Source of the DNA: Bryobacteraceae bacterium
GTDB taxonomy: Bacteria; Acidobacteriota; Terriglobia; Bryobacterales; Bryobacteraceae
Direction: 5' to 3'
DNA: 15,189 nt
Assembly (NCBI GenBank): GCA_025350445.1
Contig: JANXXV010000533.1
Coordinates: forward strand, 1 to 15,189
The position numbers and the translations under genes were made by a program. Within the stretch, counting starts at the first letter, position 1; each line of letters opens with the position of its first letter. Shown here in pieces: positions 5,283 through 15,189 of this stretch. The notes beneath the pieces are model-generated. The model did no database searches. It had not been told where the DNA came from and saw nothing but the letters and a program-made list of their open reading frames with translations.

Positions 5283-5292
5283 TGTGGCTCTT

Positions 5293-6189
5293 ATGAGAGT
5301 TCTGGCCGGCATGATCGTTGCGGCTCTGGCAACGCAGGTTTTCGCGCAGGATTTGATCGCGCCGAAGGGTGCGCCAGGAAAATACACCGGGCCGCATCGC
5401 CCTATCACCAAGTGGGGGGAGCTAAAGGCTAAACACGCCGGCCACGCGGACTGGACCGAACTGATTGTGGACGACGACCGCCTGTATGCCGAGTACATTT
5501 CGGCAAAGCCCGGATCCAAATCGCCGCGAATCGTTCATCCGGATACGCGCGCGTGGTGGGTGGTGATGGATGGGGAGATCCGTTTCGACATCGAAGGCAC
5601 TGAGCCTTTTGTTGCGAAGAAAGGCTCCATCGTGCAGGCGCCGATGCAAACGCTGTTCTCGTTTGAGACGGTCGGCGATAAGCCGTCGGTGCGGTTTGAA
5701 GTGAATATCGCGGGAGCAAAAACGCTTTACACCAAAGATGCCGAGCCGCCGAAGATGCCCGGGTTCGATTGGATTCCGGTTCGGTTCCCGCGCAAGCCGG
5801 GCATTTACGGGCGGAACAATAAGCCGCATACTACTTTCGATGAAGTGGCGAAGGAGATAGATGAGGGCACGCGCAAGGGCACCATCGCCATTGTCGACGA
5901 TGACCGCGGCGCGGCTAATTTCATTTACGGACACCAGAAGAACCTTCCGGCGTTAAATCCGGCTGACAAGGGTCACTATCATCCGGAGAGTTCGGAGTTT
6001 TGGTTGATCATGGCGGGACAGATCCGCTATCCGATCGAGACGCAAGGCGTGATCATCGCCAATGTGGGCGATGTAGTGTACGTGCCGAAGAATACGTTTC
6101 ATGCACCGCGCTGGTGGGGTGATGGTCCCTCGTGCCGGTTGGCGATGAACGGGTTTCCGGGGTTGGCGCATTTGTTTGAGCCGAAGTGA
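5293..6189 (+). CDS. Secreted bicupin protein
   Basis: This is a 298-residue protein with a signal peptide (MRVLAGMIVAALATQVFA, then QDL). ATG 5293 is preferred over GTG 5284 because GGAAGGAG lies 10 nt upstream of the ATG but only 1 nt from the GTG. It has two cupin halves. The C-terminal one has a full metal site: H228, H230 and E235 in GHYHPESSEFWLIMAG fit G-x5-HxH-x4-E-x6-G, and H270 in VGDVVYVPKNTFH is the expected third histidine. The N-terminal half (HPDTRAWWVVMDGEIRF) keeps the fold but has lost part of the ligand set, so it is probably structural. The reaction is unknown. Its last 135 bp (residues 255-298 plus stop) are repeated at 10627-10761 on the far side of the DGR, so this 3' end may have arrived with the element. 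Confidence 0.88.
   Translation: MRVLAGMIVAALATQVFAQDLIAPKGAPGKYTGPHRPITKWGELKAKHAGHADWTELIVDDDRLYAEYISAKPGSKSPRIVHPDTRAWWVVMDGEIRFDIEGTEPFVAKKGSIVQAPMQTLFSFETVGDKPSVRFEVNIAGAKTLYTKDAEPPKMPGFDWIPVRFPRKPGIYGRNNKPHTTFDEVAKEIDEGTRKGTIAIVDDDRGAANFIYGHQKNLPALNPADKGHYHPESSEFWLIMAGQIRYPIETQGVIIANVGDVVYVPKNTFHAPRWWGDGPSCRLAMNGFPGLAHLFEPK
6055..6189 (+). repeat. 135-bp direct repeat, left copy (3' end of bicupin gene)
   Basis: This segment aligns without gaps to 10627-10761, with four mismatches (at 6060, 6063, 6075 and 6105 in this copy), all at synonymous third codon positions. Similarity stops exactly at the stop codon on one side and at codon 255 on the other. The two copies bracket the DGR like the repeats left when an element enters a gene 3' end. 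Confidence 0.9.
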
Positions 6190-6294: not shown

Positions 6295-7386
6295 TCAAAT
6301 TGTCCGAGGCGGCGAAGTCGCCAGGAATTGTTTTGGGCTGAAGGCCACTTGATCGAAAATCTGTTCCCGTAACTTCCAAGTATCTCCATGCTTTGCGTGC
6401 CCGATCCACGCCGCGAGGGACTGATGTATTTCATCCCATTCGACGTCCCCGATTTTCCACCGATGCTGGAGATTATTAAGCCGCCTCCGGAATCGGACGA
6501 CGTTTCCTCTTACCAGGCGCCGGTGGTCTGGAAAGATTCGCCAGCCCAGAAACGTGAGTCCATCACACACTCTGTAAATTCGGGACTTGCCAGGATGCAA
6601 GCACAGCCGCAAATCCACAAGATGTTGCTCGATCGCAGAACGGAAAATACGCAGCTTCTCTTTGTCTTGGTCCAGGAGCACGAAATCATCCACGTAGCGG
6701 GCGTATGCCGTAGGCCGCAACTGGCGTATCACCAGATGGTCCAAACTATTGAGATAGACATTGGCAAAAAACTGAGAAGTCTGATTGCCTAGCGGCAACC
6801 CTCGCCGCCGAACGGCGGGGGTGAACAGATTGTCGCCGGGAAAGTACCAATCCACCTGTTCCTGCGGATTCGAACCATCTATGATGCGGGATGCAAGATC
6901 GAGCGTGGGCTTGCAACGAACCACTCGTTCCAGCTTCGCTTGTAAAATCTGGTGGTCAATACTGGCAAAGTATTTGCGAATGTCACAGCGTAGTGCGTAT
7001 CCGCCAAGGCGGGCAGCGCACTGTACGCAGCCCACCGCCGCATGCGAGCCCAAGCCACTGCGGCAAGCGAAGCTCACTGGCAGAAAGCGGCGTTCAAAGA
7101 TTGGCTCCAAAACTTGCGTAAGCGCGTGATGAACTACCCGGTCGCGAAATGGGGCTGCCGATATCCGCCGCGGCTTCGGTTCACGAATCTCGAAAACTCT
7201 GTAAACTCCTGGCTGATAGATCCCGCTCAGTAACTCGCGCTGGAGCGCCACCACTTCGATCTCCTGCCCACACAGAAACGCCGCTACGTCTGGGCGGCTC
7301 TTCTTACCCAGCGCCGCCCGGCGCACGGCTTCAAAGAGGTTTGCATGGGAAAGCACCTGCGGCCACAACTCTCCAACTCGCTTCAT
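6295..7386 (-). CDS. DGR reverse transcriptase
   Basis: This 363-residue reverse transcriptase copies the template-repeat RNA into adenine-mutated cDNA for transfer into the target gene. The start at ATG 7386 overlaps the avd stop as ATGA, indicating translational coupling; ATG 7410 would overlap avd by 28 bp. Fingers/palm motifs include LRCDIRKYFASIDH (motif A aspartate), LGNQTSQ at 199-205 and the catalytic YVDD at 231-234. The LGNxxSQ form of motif 4 is characteristic of DGR RTs; retron and group II intron RTs normally have QGxxxSP. No maturase, endonuclease or RNase H domain is visible. The C-terminus (about residues 270-363) contains FLGWRIF followed by a basic stretch, as in other DGR RTs. 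Its neighbours avd, TR and VR confirm the assignment. Confidence 0.95.
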   Translation of the reverse strand: MKRVGELWPQVLSHANLFEAVRRAALGKKSRPDVAAFLCGQEIEVVALQRELLSGIYQPGVYRVFEIREPKPRRISAAPFRDRVVHHALTQVLEPIFERRFLPVSFACRSGLGSHAAVGCVQCAARLGGYALRCDIRKYFASIDHQILQAKLERVVRCKPTLDLASRIIDGSNPQEQVDWYFPGDNLFTPAVRRRGLPLGNQTSQFFANVYLNSLDHLVIRQLRPTAYARYVDDFVLLDQDKEKLRIFRSAIEQHLVDLRLCLHPGKSRIYRVCDGLTFLGWRIFPDHRRLVRGNVVRFRRRLNNLQHRWKIGDVEWDEIHQSLAAWIGHAKHGDTWKLREQIFDQVAFSPKQFLATSPPRTI

Positions 7387-7730
7387 CGAGTTACCGACGC
7401 TTTTCGCCATCCGCCGGCCATTCGCCCCAGCTCCTCTATGAGTCCAGCGGCAAAGCCATATGATTCCACGCTAAGAAGATTCAGATCCTTAGACAGGCGC
7501 ATCAGGAAACGCAGGCAGTTCAAGTCGCGAATCGCTCGATCCAGCGGAGCTTCGCGTCTAGCTGAGTATGCCGCCTCCACCAGCGCCGTGAGCAGGTCCA
7601 GCATGGTGGTCGTGATGCGGTCGCCTATAGTAAACCGGTAGGTACGAGGAAACCGTTCCACTTTAGGCAAGAGCCATAGAGACAAGTCATAGGCTTTTTG
7701 AACTATGGGGGCGGATTCCGCAAGTGACAT
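7383..7730 (-). CDS. avd: DGR accessory variability determinant (Avd-like four-helix protein)
   Basis: This small basic protein has 115 residues, the usual size for Avd. Family knowledge: Avd forms a positively charged pentameric four-helix barrel that binds the RT and the template RNA and is required for cDNA synthesis. Sequence features that fit are the N-terminal YDLSLWLLPKVERFPRTYRF, then IGDRI, an alanine/arginine-rich middle (AAYSARREAPLDRAIRDL) and the C-terminal EELGRMAGGWRKA, close to the GRMxGGW ending common in the family. It lies between TR and RT, and its TGA overlaps the RT ATG. No good Shine-Dalgarno is visible. A TATAAT hexamer on the coding strand (7742-7737) ends 6 nt before the ATG, so a nearly leaderless transcript is conceivable, but no -35 box supports it. 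Confidence 0.9.
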   Translation of the reverse strand: MSLAESAPIVQKAYDLSLWLLPKVERFPRTYRFTIGDRITTTMLDLLTALVEAAYSARREAPLDRAIRDLNCLRFLMRLSKDLNLLSVESYGFAAGLIEELGRMAGGWRKASVTR

Positions 7731-7788
7731 TGTCCGATTATACGGAAGACCGGCTGAGCTTCGCGGGGTGAACCGTTACCACAAAACC

Positions 7789-7827
7789 GGCCTTCAATTT
7801 ATGTTTGGCCCCATGAATTATAAGGCC
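7789..7827 (-). other. Long imperfect hairpin in the TR-avd spacer
   Basis: The arms 7789-7803 and 7812-7827 pair as GGCCTT/AAGGCC, then a small internal loop, then an eight-position inner stem containing AATT/AATT and ATG/CAT. The 8-nt loop is TTTGGCCC. On the transcribed minus strand one inner pair becomes A-C. The 183-nt spacer 7731-7913 has no credible gene. Family knowledge: in the Bordetella phage DGR, RNA next to TR is structured and needed for cDNA priming, so this may be the equivalent. Confidence 0.5.
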
Positions 7828-7913
7828 AGGACCGAAACCCGGAAGCAAGGAGGCACGCTCGCTGGAGGATTTAGTCCCAGCCGACTCTGGCCGACACCCG
7901 AAGGCGCCTTGCA

Positions 7914-8026
7914 TCCCACGCGCAACGAAAGCCGATGTTGTTGTTGAGTTTCGTTGGATCGTTCCTGTTACGGTTCGACGCCCGGAGCCTTCTGGAATTG
8001 TTGTTCCAAGAACCGCCCCGCAGTTT
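7914..8026 (-). repeat. DGR template repeat (TR)
   Basis: This is a 113-bp non-coding copy of the 3' end of the target gene, aligning without gaps to VR at a constant offset of 230. Read on the minus strand in the VR frame it would encode [17 protein letters not shown], then [13 protein letters not shown] and IGFRCAW. It is full of AAC/AAA codons that adenine mutagenesis can change without creating stops. By hand count, 19 of its 33 coding-strand adenines differ in VR and none of the other 80 bases do. The 25 bp at its 3' end (7914-7938) are identical to VR and are the probable counterpart of the initiation-of-mutagenic-homing region. Intergenic stretch 7731-8139 holds TR, flanking hairpins and no gene. 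Confidence 0.96.
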
Positions 8027-8088
8027 CTGGTTCCGTTCCCGTCCATAGAATAGCGTAGCTCACTTGGAAGTGGCAAATAAAATTTTCC

Positions 8089-8103
8089 CGCGGCTTCGCC
8101 GCG
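8089..8103 (-). other. GC hairpin downstream of VR (DGR cruciform candidate)
   Basis: CGCGGC and GCCGCG form a perfect 6-bp stem with a GAA loop on the coding (minus) strand. It lies about 40 nt after VR and 63 nt before TR. Family knowledge: several DGRs need a GC-rich hairpin with a GA-rich loop just downstream of VR for efficient homing. The distance here is longer than in phage examples. No U-tract follows, so termination is less likely. Confidence 0.55.
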
Positions 8104-8139
8104 AAGAGTAAAAGGAAAAGAGAAAAGAGTAAAGGAAAG
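8104..8139. other. 36-bp polypurine/polypyrimidine tract between VR and hairpin
   Basis: The plus strand is purine apart from two T bases. It consists of an imperfect direct repeat: AAGAGTAAAAGGAAAAG (8104-8120), then AAGAGTAAAGGAAAG (8125-8139). It starts immediately after the target stop codon and ends at the GC hairpin. Such strand asymmetry can promote unusual DNA structure or nicking. A role in homing is only inferred. Confidence 0.55.
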
Positions 8140-10524
8140 TCATTCCCACGCGCAACGAAAGCCGATGTCGTCGTCGAGTCCCGACGGATCGCCCCCGTCA
8201 CGGTCCGACGCCCGGAGCCCTCCGGAATTGTTGACCCAAGAACCGCCCCGCAGCACTCGCTTTTCACCGTCCGTTGGACCGGTCGGATCGGTTCCTCCTG
8301 ATAGGTTTTCTGTGTATCGGTCGCCAGTCCACTCCCAGACGTTACCCAACATGTCGTACAGACCGTAGCTGTTTGGTGTCTTGCCTCTCACTGAGTGTGT
8401 TTTCTGTCCGCTGTTCTTGTCGTACCATCCCACTTGATCTAAATCACTGTAGCGCGACGACGGGTTTCCACCCCGCGCCGCATACTCCCACTCCGCCTCC
8501 GTTGGCAGTCTTCCGCCAATCGTCTCGCAATAGGACTTCGCCTGATTCCAATTAACCGATTCTACCGGCAAGTCGGCACCCTTGAAATGGCTAGGATTAT
8601 TTCCAGTGACCTTTTCGTACGCGGCCTGCGTCACTTCCGTCTCTCCAAGCCAATATCCCTTGGTCAGTGTCACCTGCTTTGATGGCTTTTCATCGTTGTC
8701 GCATTCTCCATCTCCCGGAGAACAACCCATTTGAAACCGACCCGGCGGAATCCAGACATACCGCAAGCCATCTTTCGGATTCCTACGCGGATTCGTCGTG
8801 TCAATTCTAGCGGCTGACACCGAACCTCCCCTTGGATCTGTACGATAAGAGTTGCCCGCCGCGGTTGTAGAGTTGCCAGCCACGGTTGCAAATTTCAAGG
8901 AACGATCAGAAACCCCAACAAGAACTTCTTTAAAAATTTGCTCCCAAAGATCCCGCTTCACTCCGCCGTTCGGCGATAAAAGCTGTCCGACGCTACGTTC
9001 GAGCAACTTTTGGTTAGATCGCACTCTTTCGGAGAATTCGTTTGGCGGGAGACCTGCTTCAGCGGCTGCTAATTCGAGGTTGAGCTCCGCGTCGTACTTT
9101 ACCGAGAGAGCGTGGATCGGTTCCGTACGAAAGTCGACGCTTATCACGCCATCTGCGTTGCGAACAGCGTTTTCAAATCTGTCCGCATCCTGCTTGAGAT
9201 AGGCATTCAACCGATCTTGTTTCGGGTAAATTGCTAAGGCTTTGTCGCGATCAAACGCTGCACTATTTGAAGCTTCAAGCATGGGACGAACTTCGTCTCT
9301 GAAGGTTTTCATGCCGGCGTAATGGCAACTCATGCATGATCTTCCATTGAAAACTTCCGGAGAGTCCGGATTGTTCTTATCGAACACTATGGTGACAGGG
9401 CCCTTGTCCAACGACTTGCCCTGTCCGTTTGTGAGGAAATAGGCTTGCATGCCATTCGGCAAATTAAAAATGATCTCTCCGCCAGCTGGGGAAAAATCGA
9501 GAGGATTCTCGAAAATGTTTTGTTTACCTACGTTGGCGCTAAAATCGTAGCTTCTCCAATAAGCGCCATAGGAAGAAGTATGGCGTTCCACGATACGGTT
9601 GTTGCGGGAAACACCACTCTTGCGGACTCCTCCACGTGCCGTATTCTTTTCCTCTGCTATGTCCCGGTCAACATCGACACCCAGTATTGTTTCAAGCTCC
9701 TGGACTGAAGATGGAAGGCGAAGAATACCGTTGTAAAGTGGCGGGACTGATGCCTCAGCCACGAACCAATCCGCTCTCACATAACCTAGCGGTGAGCCGG
9801 AAAGCGTTTTGATCATCTCAAGGTCGGACGTTACGGCCTCAATTCCATATGGATAGGCATCCACAATTTGCTTCCACGTACTTCCGGTCCAGTTGAGATC
9901 GCGCAGGTCGATTCGTAATATTGTCTTCGCTGGATCTATCGGCACAGGGACAGAGATTTCCCGGCTCCAAGAAAGGCTGTTGATTAGTTTGGAGAGGCCG
10001 GTTCTATAACCATTCAATTCGGCCTCTGGTATGCCGGCGTTGTATAGATGGGCGATGCTGTAATACCGCAAGAATTGCCGATCACGATCCCCGGCTGATT
10101 CCAGATCGCGGCGGATGATTTTCGTAATCTGGTCGTTGCGCAAGAAAGATCGAGCTGCCTTCGCCGTGGGTGTAGTCCAGTTTAGGGCTCCCGTTGAAAT
10201 CCATTCGCGGAGAATCGCTTTTTCCTGCTCGGGAAGTGGGGGGCCACCATCAGGCATCCTTCCAGTCTCGACCGCCTGTAGAAGCGGCGAATTGCGATCA
10301 CCGGGAACAACCGTTTTCGCGCTCAGGAGACGGTCACGGTCCAGGACATATACGGAATTCACAGACTGACCGCCGAGGCCATGACATGTGAAACATCTTT
10401 TGCGGAGGATGGATTCCGCTTTTGCGGCAACGGTAGACTGGGCGGCTAGCTGGCTCTGAAATATAGAAGGTGCAACCATGGCTGAAACAAATAGCGCCCG
10501 AGACCATCCGAACTTCCAGTGCAT
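8140..10524 (-). CDS. DGR target: secreted dihaem cytochrome c with diversified FGE-sulfatase/C-type-lectin domain
   Basis: This is a 794-residue protein. ATG 10524 is chosen because GGAGG (10538-10534) lies 9 nt upstream and a promoter lies just before it; a longer frame to 10599 would include that promoter. A signal peptide (MHWKFGWSRALFVSAMVAPS, then IFQSQLAAQ) exports it. Haem site 1, CFTCH, is at 44-48 with probable ligand Met90 in RMPDGG, in a planctomycete-type cytochrome module ending LREWISTGALNW. Residues about 110-390 are a domain I cannot name, containing IIFNLPNGMQAYFL. Haem site 2, CMSCH, is at 397-401. From about 580 onward is an FGE-sulfatase domain (YVWIPPGRFQMG, LPTEAEWEYAARGG, LGNVWEW, LRGGSW). 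Residues 757-794 are encoded by VR. Known DGR targets use this lectin-like fold for ligand binding. No sulfatase-maturing activity is implied. Confidence 0.93.
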   Translation of the reverse strand: MHWKFGWSRALFVSAMVAPSIFQSQLAAQSTVAAKAESILRKRCFTCHGLGGQSVNSVYVLDRDRLLSAKTVVPGDRNSPLLQAVETGRMPDGGPPLPEQEKAILREWISTGALNWTTPTAKAARSFLRNDQITKIIRRDLESAGDRDRQFLRYYSIAHLYNAGIPEAELNGYRTGLSKLINSLSWSREISVPVPIDPAKTILRIDLRDLNWTGSTWKQIVDAYPYGIEAVTSDLEMIKTLSGSPLGYVRADWFVAEASVPPLYNGILRLPSSVQELETILGVDVDRDIAEEKNTARGGVRKSGVSRNNRIVERHTSSYGAYWRSYDFSANVGKQNIFENPLDFSPAGGEIIFNLPNGMQAYFLTNGQGKSLDKGPVTIVFDKNNPDSPEVFNGRSCMSCHYAGMKTFRDEVRPMLEASNSAAFDRDKALAIYPKQDRLNAYLKQDADRFENAVRNADGVISVDFRTEPIHALSVKYDAELNLELAAAEAGLPPNEFSERVRSNQKLLERSVGQLLSPNGGVKRDLWEQIFKEVLVGVSDRSLKFATVAGNSTTAAGNSYRTDPRGGSVSAARIDTTNPRRNPKDGLRYVWIPPGRFQMGCSPGDGECDNDEKPSKQVTLTKGYWLGETEVTQAAYEKVTGNNPSHFKGADLPVESVNWNQAKSYCETIGGRLPTEAEWEYAARGGNPSSRYSDLDQVGWYDKNSGQKTHSVRGKTPNSYGLYDMLGNVWEWTGDRYTENLSGGTDPTGPTDGEKRVLRGGSWVNNSGGLRASDRDGGDPSGLDDDIGFRCAWE
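8144..8256 (-). repeat. DGR variable repeat (VR)
   Basis: This is the 113-bp 3' end of the target gene, matching TR. On the coding strand, 16 differences are A to G and 3 are A to T (none A to C). They produce changes such as N to D, N to G, N to V, R to G, K to G, K to V and T to S; one (CCA to CCG) is silent. The current sequence reads VLRGGSWVNNSGGLRASDRD, then GGDPSGLDDD and IGFRCAWE. The invariant end (8144-8168) encodes IGFRCAW and is the likely homing-initiation site. Confidence 0.96.
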
Positions 10525-10549
10525 TGACGTGTGCCTCCGCTTCGTAGCA

Positions 10550-10577
10550 ATTATGCCACGCGCTTGTCTGATGTAAA
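10550..10577 (-). promoter_or_regulatory. Promoter of the DGR target gene
   Basis: On the minus strand, TTTACA (10577-10572) and CATAAT (10555-10550), each 5 of 6 to consensus, are spaced by 16 bp. Transcription would begin near 10543, about 19 nt before ATG 10524, with GGAGG between them. This supports the shorter start and suggests the target is expressed constitutively from within the element. Confidence 0.6.
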
Positions 10578-10626
10578 GAGAAAAACTGCGGAAATACATG
10601 TCTCGATTAACCTAGGCACGCCGTCC

Positions 10627-10761
10627 ATCGCGAACGTGGGCGATGTGGTGTACGTGCCGAAGAATACGTTTCATGCGCCGCGCTGGTGGGGTGATGGTCC
10701 CTCGTGCCGGTTGGCGATGAACGGGTTTCCGGGGTTGGCGCATTTGTTTGAGCCGAAGTGA
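10627..10761 (+). pseudogene. Orphan 3' fragment of a bicupin gene (right direct repeat)
   Basis: This copy encodes the last 44 residues and the stop of the bicupin at 5293-6189 (from IANVGDVVYVPKNTFH to LFEPK). It has four synonymous differences, and no cupin sequence precedes it. An open frame runs back to 10531, but that part has no cupin similarity and overlaps the target promoter, so it is not a gene. Purely synonymous divergence means both copies evolved as functional genes before this one was cut off. It may be the original 3' end of the resident gene. Confidence 0.88.
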
Positions 10762-14038: not shown

Positions 14039-14265
14039 GACATCGCAAGGATCCCCGCTAATCCGCGTCCGCCGGCGGCTACAAATCTTCACCGGGCATA
14101 ACGCGGATCAACAACGACAAATTGGCCCGTCCAGCCATTCCTTGAACACGGCATTTCGGGAGGCCGGTCCAGACAGCAGTGCGGGGATGTCACCATGGCA
14201 ACCGGGTGAAATGCGGCGCATCCTTTCACCGGCGGTTAGAATCTAAACACGGTATACCCGGACAG

Positions 14266-15189
14266 ATGAAGAGCACTCTCCAAATTTTTTTGCACTACGG
14301 TTATTGGGTTCTATTCGCTACGGTGCTCGCCGAGCAATTGGGGTTGCCGATCCCCGCTGTGCCTGCGCTGCTTGCGATGGGCGTCCTTGCGGGGTTGGGC
14401 AAATTTTCGTTCGCCATGGCGCTGGGGATCGCGCTACTGGCATGCTTGCTGGCCGATTTCCTGTGGTACTACATGGGACGGACACGCGGCCAATCCATTC
14501 TAAATCTGCTGTGCCGGCTTTCGCTTGAGCCCGATTACTGCGTAAGCCGGACCAAGGGCCTGTTCGGGCGATACGGCGACAAAGGGCTTTTGGTCGCCAA
14601 GTTTCTCCCTGGTTTCAGCACGGTCGCCCCACCGATGGCGGGCCTTACGCGCATGAGTCCCGGGCGCTTTCTGCTTCTGGACGGGTTCGGCAGCCTATTG
14701 TGGACAGTCGCTTTCATGGGGAGCGGTTACGTTTTGCGCGCCCAGATCGAATTGGCTGCCGAGGCGTTAAGCCGGTTTGGATCGTCGCTGGGACTAATAG
14801 TGGGGCTGCTCGTCGGATTCTACGGGACCTGGCAATTGGTGCTGCGGCGAAAGACCCTGCTGTCCCTGCGGGAGGCCCGGGTTACTCCGGAAGAAGTGAT
14901 GGACCGGCTGAACGCCGGCGAAAAACTGGTGATTCTCGACCTGCGGCAACAACATGACGTCGATTCAAATCCGATGCGTCTGCCGAGCGCCATCCATTTC
15001 ACCGTGGATGAGTTGGAGGCGAGACACGAAGAGATACCCAGAGACCGCGAAATTGTTCTCTATTGTTCTTGACCAACCGAATTGACGAGCGCCCGTGCGG
15101 CGCTGAACCTGCACCGCCGGGGAATTATGCGCGTACGTCCGCTGGAAGGCGGATTCGAGGCATGGCGGGAACTCGGCTATCCGCTGGAG
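14266..15189 (+). CDS. DedA membrane protein fused to rhodanese domain, in-frame TGA (candidate selenoprotein; 3' end beyond window)
   Basis: The start is ATG 14266 (MKSTLQIFLHYGYW); no strong Shine-Dalgarno is visible. Residues 1-195 are a DedA/SNARE-associated domain with several hydrophobic segments. They include LAEQLGLPIPAVPALLAMGV and KFLPGFSTVAPPMAGL, typical of the DedA-rhodanese subfamily. A rhodanese domain follows from about residue 205 (EEVMDRLNAGEKLVILDLR, then IVLYCS). TGA 15070-15072 is codon 269. The same frame stays open to the window end for 39 codons and reads PTELTSARAALNLHRRG, then RPLEGGFEAWRELGYPLE, plain rhodanese sequence. As I recall the family, this position is the second Cys of YCxCPNE, one base from TGA, so selenocysteine or a nonsense mutation would both fit. 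If TGA is a true stop, the product has 268 residues and loses the end of the rhodanese domain. The 227 bp upstream hold no gene. Confidence 0.82.
15088..15104 (+). promoter_or_regulatory. SECIS-like hairpin downstream of the in-frame TGA
   Basis: AGCGCC (15088-15093) and GGCGCT (15099-15104) form a perfect 6-bp stem with loop CGTGC. The stem starts 15 nt and the loop 21 nt after the TGA. As I recall the bacterial SECIS model, a G is needed among the first two loop bases, and the loop should lie roughly 16-37 nt from the UGA. Both conditions are met, and the loop also contains GU. The hairpin overlaps coding sequence, as bacterial SECIS elements do. Confidence 0.5.

What the first reader, a model, noticed from the sequence alone, without database searches (positions are those of the whole stretch)
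15070..15104. Candidate selenocysteine codon in a DedA-rhodanese fusion
In-frame TGA falls where relatives carry Cys in the rhodanese active-site loop (YCS-TGA-PTE). Conserved rhodanese sequence continues for 39 codons in the same frame. A 6-bp perfect hairpin with a CGTGC loop starts 15 nt downstream, matching the bacterial SECIS layout. This would be a CxU selenosulfurtransferase-like membrane protein.
Basis: partly seen in the sequence, partly recalled or inferred. Interest (0 to 1): 0.88.

Follow-up and report, generated by a model that had tools for sequence, protein, structure and literature searches.

The report
Selenium-containing DedA-rhodanese membrane protein
A bacterial membrane protein that databases cut short at a 'stop' codon very probably continues through it by inserting selenocysteine next to its active-site cysteine, giving a selenium-containing version of a membrane-bound sulfur or redox enzyme whose function is still unknown.

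Summary
An ORF (14266 to past the window's end) encodes a DedA/VTT domain plus a rhodanese domain, with TGA at 15070-15072 and a 6-bp hairpin 15 nt downstream. In 97 comparable genes this codon is TGA in 43, Cys in 50, Ser/Arg in 4. TGA tracks the selenocysteine machinery: SelA in 30 of 31 TGA-form genomes against 5 of 41 others, tRNA-Sec in 27 of 31 against 6 of 41. Synonymous codons in the hairpin are far more constrained in TGA genes than in Cys genes. Correction: Sec is not the canonical rhodanese Cys (C267, Cys in 97 of 97) but lies two residues after it (CxU). New here: a DedA-half Cys pair, C83/C92, in 88 of 88 TGA or Cys rows that contain that half, in 0 of 19 DedAs taken as single-domain; the lipid-flippase residues are largely lost. 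CxU rhodaneses and DedA-rhodanese fusions are in print; I found no selenocysteine fusion in the papers searched. Probably a membrane-tethered thiol/persulfide enzyme; chemistry unproven. The window's own genome could not be examined.

The parts
14266..15189 (+). DedA(VTT)-rhodanese ORF with one TGA read as Sec; open at the window's end
   Evidence: start agrees with relatives
14350..14730 (+). DedA / VTT membrane domain (residues 29-155)
   Evidence: Pfam PF09335, 53 bits, cut-off 33.9
14512..14514 (+). C83 codon, first of a Cys pair of the DedA half
   Evidence: C83 and C92 in 38 of 38 TGA rows that contain the DedA half and 50 of 50 Cys rows; 0 of 19 DedAs taken as single-domain
14539..14541 (+). 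C92 codon, second of the Cys pair
14884..15171 (+). Rhodanese domain (residues 207-302)
15064..15066 (+). C267 codon, canonical rhodanese active-site Cys
   Evidence: Cys in 97 of 97 rows; aligned with the Cys of the 3tp9 loop; follows strand 262-266 of the model
15070..15072 (+). TGA read as selenocysteine, Sec269
   Evidence: 43 TGA, 50 Cys, 3 Ser, 1 Arg in 97 rows
15088..15104 (+). bSECIS-type hairpin, 6 bp, 5-nt loop CGUGC, 21 nt between UGA and loop
   Evidence: synonymous codon constraint

Best explanation
The gene encodes a membrane selenoprotein. [quoted passage not shown] Proposed mechanism (inferred, about 0.35-0.4): C267, the canonical rhodanese Cys, accepts sulfane sulfur or an oxidising equivalent; Sec269 resolves the intermediate as a selenenylsulfide with C267, releasing sulfide or a reduced product; a thiol reductant, possibly through the C83/C92 pair of the DedA half, regenerates it. 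The DedA part tethers the enzyme to the membrane and is probably not a standard undecaprenyl-phosphate flippase, since three of its four key residues are changed. The confidence given is for the first part (Sec protein with CxU), not for the chemistry.
For: Codon alternation TGA 43, Cys 50, Ser 3, Arg 1 of 97. SelA in 30 of 31 TGA-form genomes against 5 of 41 others; tRNA-Sec in 27 of 31 against 6 of 41; all of these 31 have one or the other. bSECIS filter passed by 33 of 43 TGA genes, 7 of 50 Cys genes. Hairpin more stable than synonymous recodings at p<0.05 in 24 of 43 TGA genes, 2 of 50 Cys genes. Hairpin codons in TGA against Cys genes: Ala GCC 41 of 42 against 25 of 39, Arg CGC 0 of 41 against 6 of 10, Val GTG 29 of 29 against 7 of 19, Ala GCG 39 of 43 against 19 of 49. 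Of 120 listed database homologues 23, besides the window's own, end just before the TGA. After the TGA third codon positions vary most on average over 42 pairs (0.28, 0.34, 0.55). TGA ends 7 of 9 other ORFs checked in the window, so it is not reassigned in general. C83/C92 accompany CxU or CxC.
Against: No genome is held for the window, so its own Sec machinery is untested. The ORF leaves the window before its stop. Ten of 43 TGA genes fail the energy limit of the hairpin filter (L010, L119, L123-L128, L130, L135). Part of the codon bias is shared by Cys genes: Ser AGC 36 of 43 there against 35 of 36, and GCC 25 of 39 is above their gene-wide rate. Covariation in the stem is slight: one pair with changes on both sides, and a stem slid by one column shows more such cells. 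Cys forms also occur in genomes with the machinery (G005, G078, G053, G403, G231). Rows are related, so counts are not independent. Nothing computed tests the chemistry; no gene neighbour is shared across the family (largest cluster 8 of 37 loci). Four relatives have Ser or Arg there.
Confidence: 0.92

Rival explanations
1. The TGA is an ordinary stop or a decay mutation; the product is a 268-residue DedA protein with a truncated rhodanese tail.
For: Gene callers end it there: 24 of 120 listed database proteins, the window's own included, stop at this residue; TGA is the common stop in this window.
Against: The frame after TGA is conserved with third-position excess on average, hairpin codons are more constrained in TGA genes, and the TGA form tracks SelA and tRNA-Sec. 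A stop would fall inside the active-site loop, and random decay would not recur at one codon.
Confidence: 0.03
2. The TGA is read through as Trp, Cys or another residue by suppression or code change rather than as Sec.
For: The frame is open beyond TGA.
Against: TGA closes 7 of 9 other ORFs checked in the window; the position is mostly Cys in relatives without the machinery; tRNA-Sec with UCA anticodon is found in seven relatives' genomes.
Confidence: 0.02
3. It is a selenoprotein, but the Sec is the sulfur-accepting nucleophile itself (a true selenosulfurtransferase), with C267 as the resolving thiol.
For: U269 to S275 has the spacing of a classic rhodanese loop (motif recalled, from no call); forms with Sec in UxxS or UxxG motifs are listed in PMC13188914 (passages).
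Against: C267 is Cys in 97 of 97 rows even where 269 is Ser or Arg, aligns with the loop Cys of 3tp9 and directly follows the strand in the model.
Confidence: 0.25
4. The DedA half is an active lipid flippase or scramblase and the CxU rhodanese is its redox regulator.
For: DedA proteins of one subfamily are described as lipid flippases (PMC10127716, passages); the C83/C92 pair lies in the DedA half and accompanies the CxU or CxC domain.
Against: Of four residues called essential for undecaprenyl-phosphate flipping only the Glu is kept (E23); Asp51 is lost, Arg130 is Lys112, Arg136 is Ser118.
Confidence: 0.2

Closest known systems
CxU rhodanese selenoprotein, NCBIfam NF041203 rhodanese_LYCAU ('form 3' in PMC13188914)
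   Same: Rhodanese domain with C-x-U in the active-site loop.
   Different: That model has 126 positions, one domain; the window scores 80.3 bits against a cut-off of 115, and 1 of 396 sampled genomes of the phylum reaches the cut-off although 172 match at E up to 1e-12. The DedA fusion and C83/C92 are not part of it; the review's main text has no occurrence of 'DedA' (passages seen only).
DedA-rhodanese fusions, such as Pseudomonas aeruginosa PA1209 and COG0586 fusions to PF00581
   Same: Same two-domain order (PMC12893004 and PMC10127716, passages).
   Different: No word beginning 'selen' in the main text of PMC12893004; one in PMC10127716, a reference title on selenite resistance. I did not fetch or align PA1209, so its residue at the Sec place is not known to me.
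DedA proteins of the undecaprenyl-phosphate flippase type (E. coli YghB)
   Same: VTT domain and the first reentrant-loop Glu.
   Different: Asp51, Arg130, Arg136 replaced; C83/C92 pair; fused rhodanese.
Rhodanese domains in persulfide enzymes (CoADR-RHD 3ict, persulfide reductase 3nta, persulfide dioxygenase-rhodanese 5ve3)
   Different: Partner domains there are not membrane DedA domains; a shared fold shows no function.

Membership tests
Bacterial selenoprotein | In-frame TGA aligned with Cys of homologues | tested here: met
   43 TGA, 50 Cys of 97
Bacterial selenoprotein | bSECIS hairpin: 3-9 nt loop, 4-16 bp stem, G in first two loop positions, 16-37 nt from UGA, MFE at most -7.5 (PMC13188914 legend, seen) | tested here: met
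   window: loop 5, stem 6, loop begins CG, 21 nt, -9.5 kcal/mol for the hairpin
Bacterial selenoprotein | selA, selB, selC, selD in the genome | not testable with these tools
   window's genome not held; found in most TGA-bearing relatives tested
Bacterial selenoprotein | Selenium in the product | not testable with these tools
   needs an experiment
NF041203 CxU rhodanese | Rhodanese domain with C-x-U/C | tested here: met
NF041203 CxU rhodanese | Score at or above the curated cut-off of 115 bits | tested here: not met
   80.3 bits
COG0586-type UndP flippase | VTT/DedA domain | tested here: met
   PF09335 53 bits
COG0586-type UndP flippase | Glu39, Asp51, Arg130, Arg136 (YghB numbers; PMC10127716, passages) | tested here: not met
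   E23 kept, Asp lost, K112, S118
Rhodanese sulfurtransferase | Active-site Cys after the strand that ends in the catalytic loop (feature recalled) | tested here: met
   C267
Rhodanese sulfurtransferase | Sulfur transfer activity | not testable with these tools
   needs an assay

The most novel reading that the evidence does not exclude
A membrane redox relay built into one chain: Sec269/C267 of the rhodanese exchange electrons or sulfur with the C83/C92 pair of the DedA half, so that a lipid or small-molecule permease is switched or driven by (seleno)thiol chemistry. The Cys pair, the CxU/CxC motif and the loss of the flippase residues would then have evolved together as one device.
Probability: 0.22. 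Interest if true: 0.8.

Novelty: new variant of a known kind. Interest (0 to 1): 0.6.

Why it matters
Selenocysteine is costly, so its recurrent use here marks the CxU site as catalytically important in a DedA-rhodanese family whose connection to lipid transport is called unclear in print (PMC10127716, passages). It also shows a set of membrane selenoproteins that gene calling cuts before the TGA and that nearly all fall under the cut-off of the existing NCBI model in the genomes sampled. The co-conserved C83/C92 pair gives a direct, testable link between the two halves.

Tried and rejected
Hairpin significance on the window alone: not convincing. Stem covariation as proof: slight, so I rest on synonymous codon constraint, which Cys genes share in part at two codons. 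Plasmid origin: no match of 14179-15189 in 72,556 plasmid records. Conserved neighbours as a clue to function: only clade-specific ones in 37 loci. tRNA or Rfam element in the window: none at the thresholds used. The tree has many weak forks: starred branches force at least 3 Sec/Cys changes, parsimony 5-6, and six long branches make details unsure.

Rows dropped or not examined: of 80 loci the first ten were examined at the codon; L011-L080 were not. L096 and L138 are second fetches of L001 and L010; L007 and L171 do not cover the codon. Of 104 match rows printed, 90 were analysed; the other 14 rows (13 loci) were looked at only for the Cys pair and flippase residues. Of these 13, seven carry C83 and C92 (L194, L195, L197, L203-L206), five do not (L196, with His at both, and L198-L201), and L202 starts at about residue 92. 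L194 and L195 matched the query in the DedA half alone yet have the pair, perhaps decayed or diverged fusions; they blur the strict pairing. The 20 DedA controls were picked by me by open frames of 187-261 residues, from 18 of 24 genomes; their domain content was not scanned, and L212 gave no aligned segment, leaving 19. Not given: G348, G355, G392 (weak DedA-only matches), G001 and G010. Three of the 31 TGA-form genomes (G105, G096, G268) are there by stand-alone TGA rhodaneses only. The tRNA-Sec search at a loose threshold also rings in 14 of 14 control genomes; at 1e-10 in 2 of 14, where it scored 50 candidates a genome with stricter filters. Its hit in G157 (no SelA) may be another tRNA.

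Full report
What is there. The ORF begins at ATG 14266 and runs past the window's end at 15189. Read with TGA as a residue it has a Pfam VTT (DedA) domain at residues 29-155 and a rhodanese domain at 207-302. No genome is held for the window; no tRNA or Rfam match was found in it. TGA closes 7 of 9 other ORFs checked here, so it is a normal stop in this organism.

The codon in relatives. One scan of genome contigs gave 80 loci; of the first ten, seven have TGA at this codon, two TGC, one does not cover it; the other 70 were not examined. A search of 396 genomes of the phylum of L001's genome (titles of the nearest loci say Acidobacteria or Bryobacterales) found matches at E up to 1e-20 in 77. 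In 101 rows (100 loci and the window), after removing two second fetches and two rows that do not cover the codon, the residue is TGA in 43, Cys in 50 (TGC or TGT), Ser in 3, Arg in 1; position 267 is Cys in all 97. The databases hold the same gene cut short: of 120 listed homologues 24, one being the window's own, end exactly before the TGA (19 of the others at 74-89% identity, 4 at 58-63%), and the other 96 have Cys. One cut form carries the NCBI name 'VTT domain-containing protein [Bryobacteraceae bacterium]'.

Machinery. In 72 genomes, SelA is found in 30 of 31 with a TGA form and 5 of 41 without. tRNA-Sec at E up to 1e-10 is found in 27 of 31 and 6 of 41. The one TGA genome of these without SelA (G350) has tRNA-Sec, and its selD itself has one TGA; the four without tRNA-Sec have SelA. 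Among the seven TGA genomes of the first scan (G001, G002, G003, G004, G006, G009, G010) tRNA-Sec over the cut-off, confirmed as UCA by ARAGORN, is in six, SelA in five, SelB over its cut-off in five with split SelB pieces in G001 and G002, SelD in seven. G004 has SelB and SelD but neither SelA nor tRNA-Sec was found. Of the two Cys genomes there, G005 has the whole set and G008 only SelD over its cut-off. Cys forms thus occur in Sec-competent genomes too (G005, G078, G053, G403, and G231 in two pieces; G141, also with SelA and tRNA-Sec, matched in the DedA half alone): TGA goes with the machinery, not the reverse.

The hairpin. The four published bSECIS limits (PMC13188914, figure legend seen) are met by the window: 6-bp stem, 5-nt loop with G second, 21 nt from UGA to loop, -9.5 kcal/mol. 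The filter is passed by 33 of 43 TGA genes, 7 of 50 Cys genes and 33 of 402 TGA triplets of the window. Against synonymous recodings with each gene's own codon usage the TGA genes fold better (mean -10.3 against -5.5 kcal/mol; p<0.05 in 24 of 43; the window at 0.05), the Cys genes do not (-5.0 against -4.5; 2 of 50). The codons show why: Ala GCC 41 of 42 (Cys genes 25 of 39), Arg never CGC in 41 (6 of 10), Val GTG 29 of 29 (7 of 19), Ala GCG 39 of 43 (19 of 49); Ser AGC is common in both, 35 of 36 and 36 of 43. These rows are related, so p-values are not those of independent draws. Covariation proper is slight.

Sec/Cys history. On a quick tree built without the Sec column, starred branches force at least 3 changes between Sec and Cys, parsimony 5-6; two groups within the tree each hold both forms. 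Long branches and open forks limit this.

Mechanism. Shown: codon, frame, alternation, machinery in relatives, codon constraint. Inferred: Sec insertion in this organism, C267 as acceptor, Sec269 as resolving residue, reduction by thioredoxin or by C83/C92. A metal site at C83/C92 is not excluded.

What is known. PMC13188914 (passages only) lists five rhodanese-like selenoprotein forms, form 3 being CxU (NF041203), and its main text has no occurrence of 'DedA'. PMC9312934 (passages) lists the CxU form too; PMC1088965 (passages) lists a rhodanese-related selenoprotein from sea water. DedA-rhodanese fusions are noted as having an unclear connection to undecaprenyl phosphate (PMC10127716, passages), and PA1209 is one (PMC12893004, passages). 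Searches: selenoprotein+rhodanese+DedA, 0 papers; selenocysteine+Acidobacteria+selenoproteome, 4 papers; selenoprotein+rhodanese+selenocysteine+bacteria, 34 papers, 20 listed; DedA+rhodanese, 7 papers; DedA+selenocysteine, 22 papers, 15 listed; NF041203, LYCAU and like terms, 3 papers; selenoprotein+Acidobacteriota, 10 papers; two of VTT domain, SNARE-associated, selenoprotein, 6 papers, 5 listed. In these listings and the passages opened I saw no report of a selenocysteine DedA fusion. Two papers by Haft and colleagues that are likely places for one are not held, so prior mention cannot be ruled out. PMC12013277 (passages) counts three known selenoprotein genes in one Acidobacteriota genome; 'rhodanese' and 'DedA' do not occur in its main text.

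Verdict. A very well supported selenoprotein, a new two-domain variant of the CxU rhodanese kind, with an unexplained Cys pair that makes its function testable.

Noticed in passing
window 6295-8253 (minus strand) and 8140-10599: A diversity-generating retroelement: reverse transcriptase (6295-7410), bAvd accessory protein (7383-7730), template repeat 7914-8023 and variable repeat 8144-8253 at the 3' end of an FGE-sulfatase-domain gene; all 16 differences are A in the template against G (14) or T (2) in the variable copy.
   Followed up: partly
window 6054-6189 and 10626-10761: 136-nt direct repeat, 97% identical, on either side of the retroelement cassette; the first copy ends at the 3' end of the cupin ORF 5284-6189.
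   Followed up: no
L183, L185, L186, L187: In the same phylum, CxU (TGA) rhodanese domains also sit at the C-terminus of frames of about 520-630 residues that look like cation/proton antiporters (name from my reading, no family search run).
   Followed up: no
L188, L190, L191, L139-L142: Stand-alone TGA-form rhodaneses, L190 and L191 with signal-like N-termini by eye.
   Followed up: no
G005, G006, G009, G010, G350: selD genes in these five genomes contain one TGA themselves, apparently a Sec-containing selenophosphate synthetase.
   Followed up: no
L196: A DedA-half relative has His at both places of the C83/C92 pair, which would suit metal binding.
   Followed up: no
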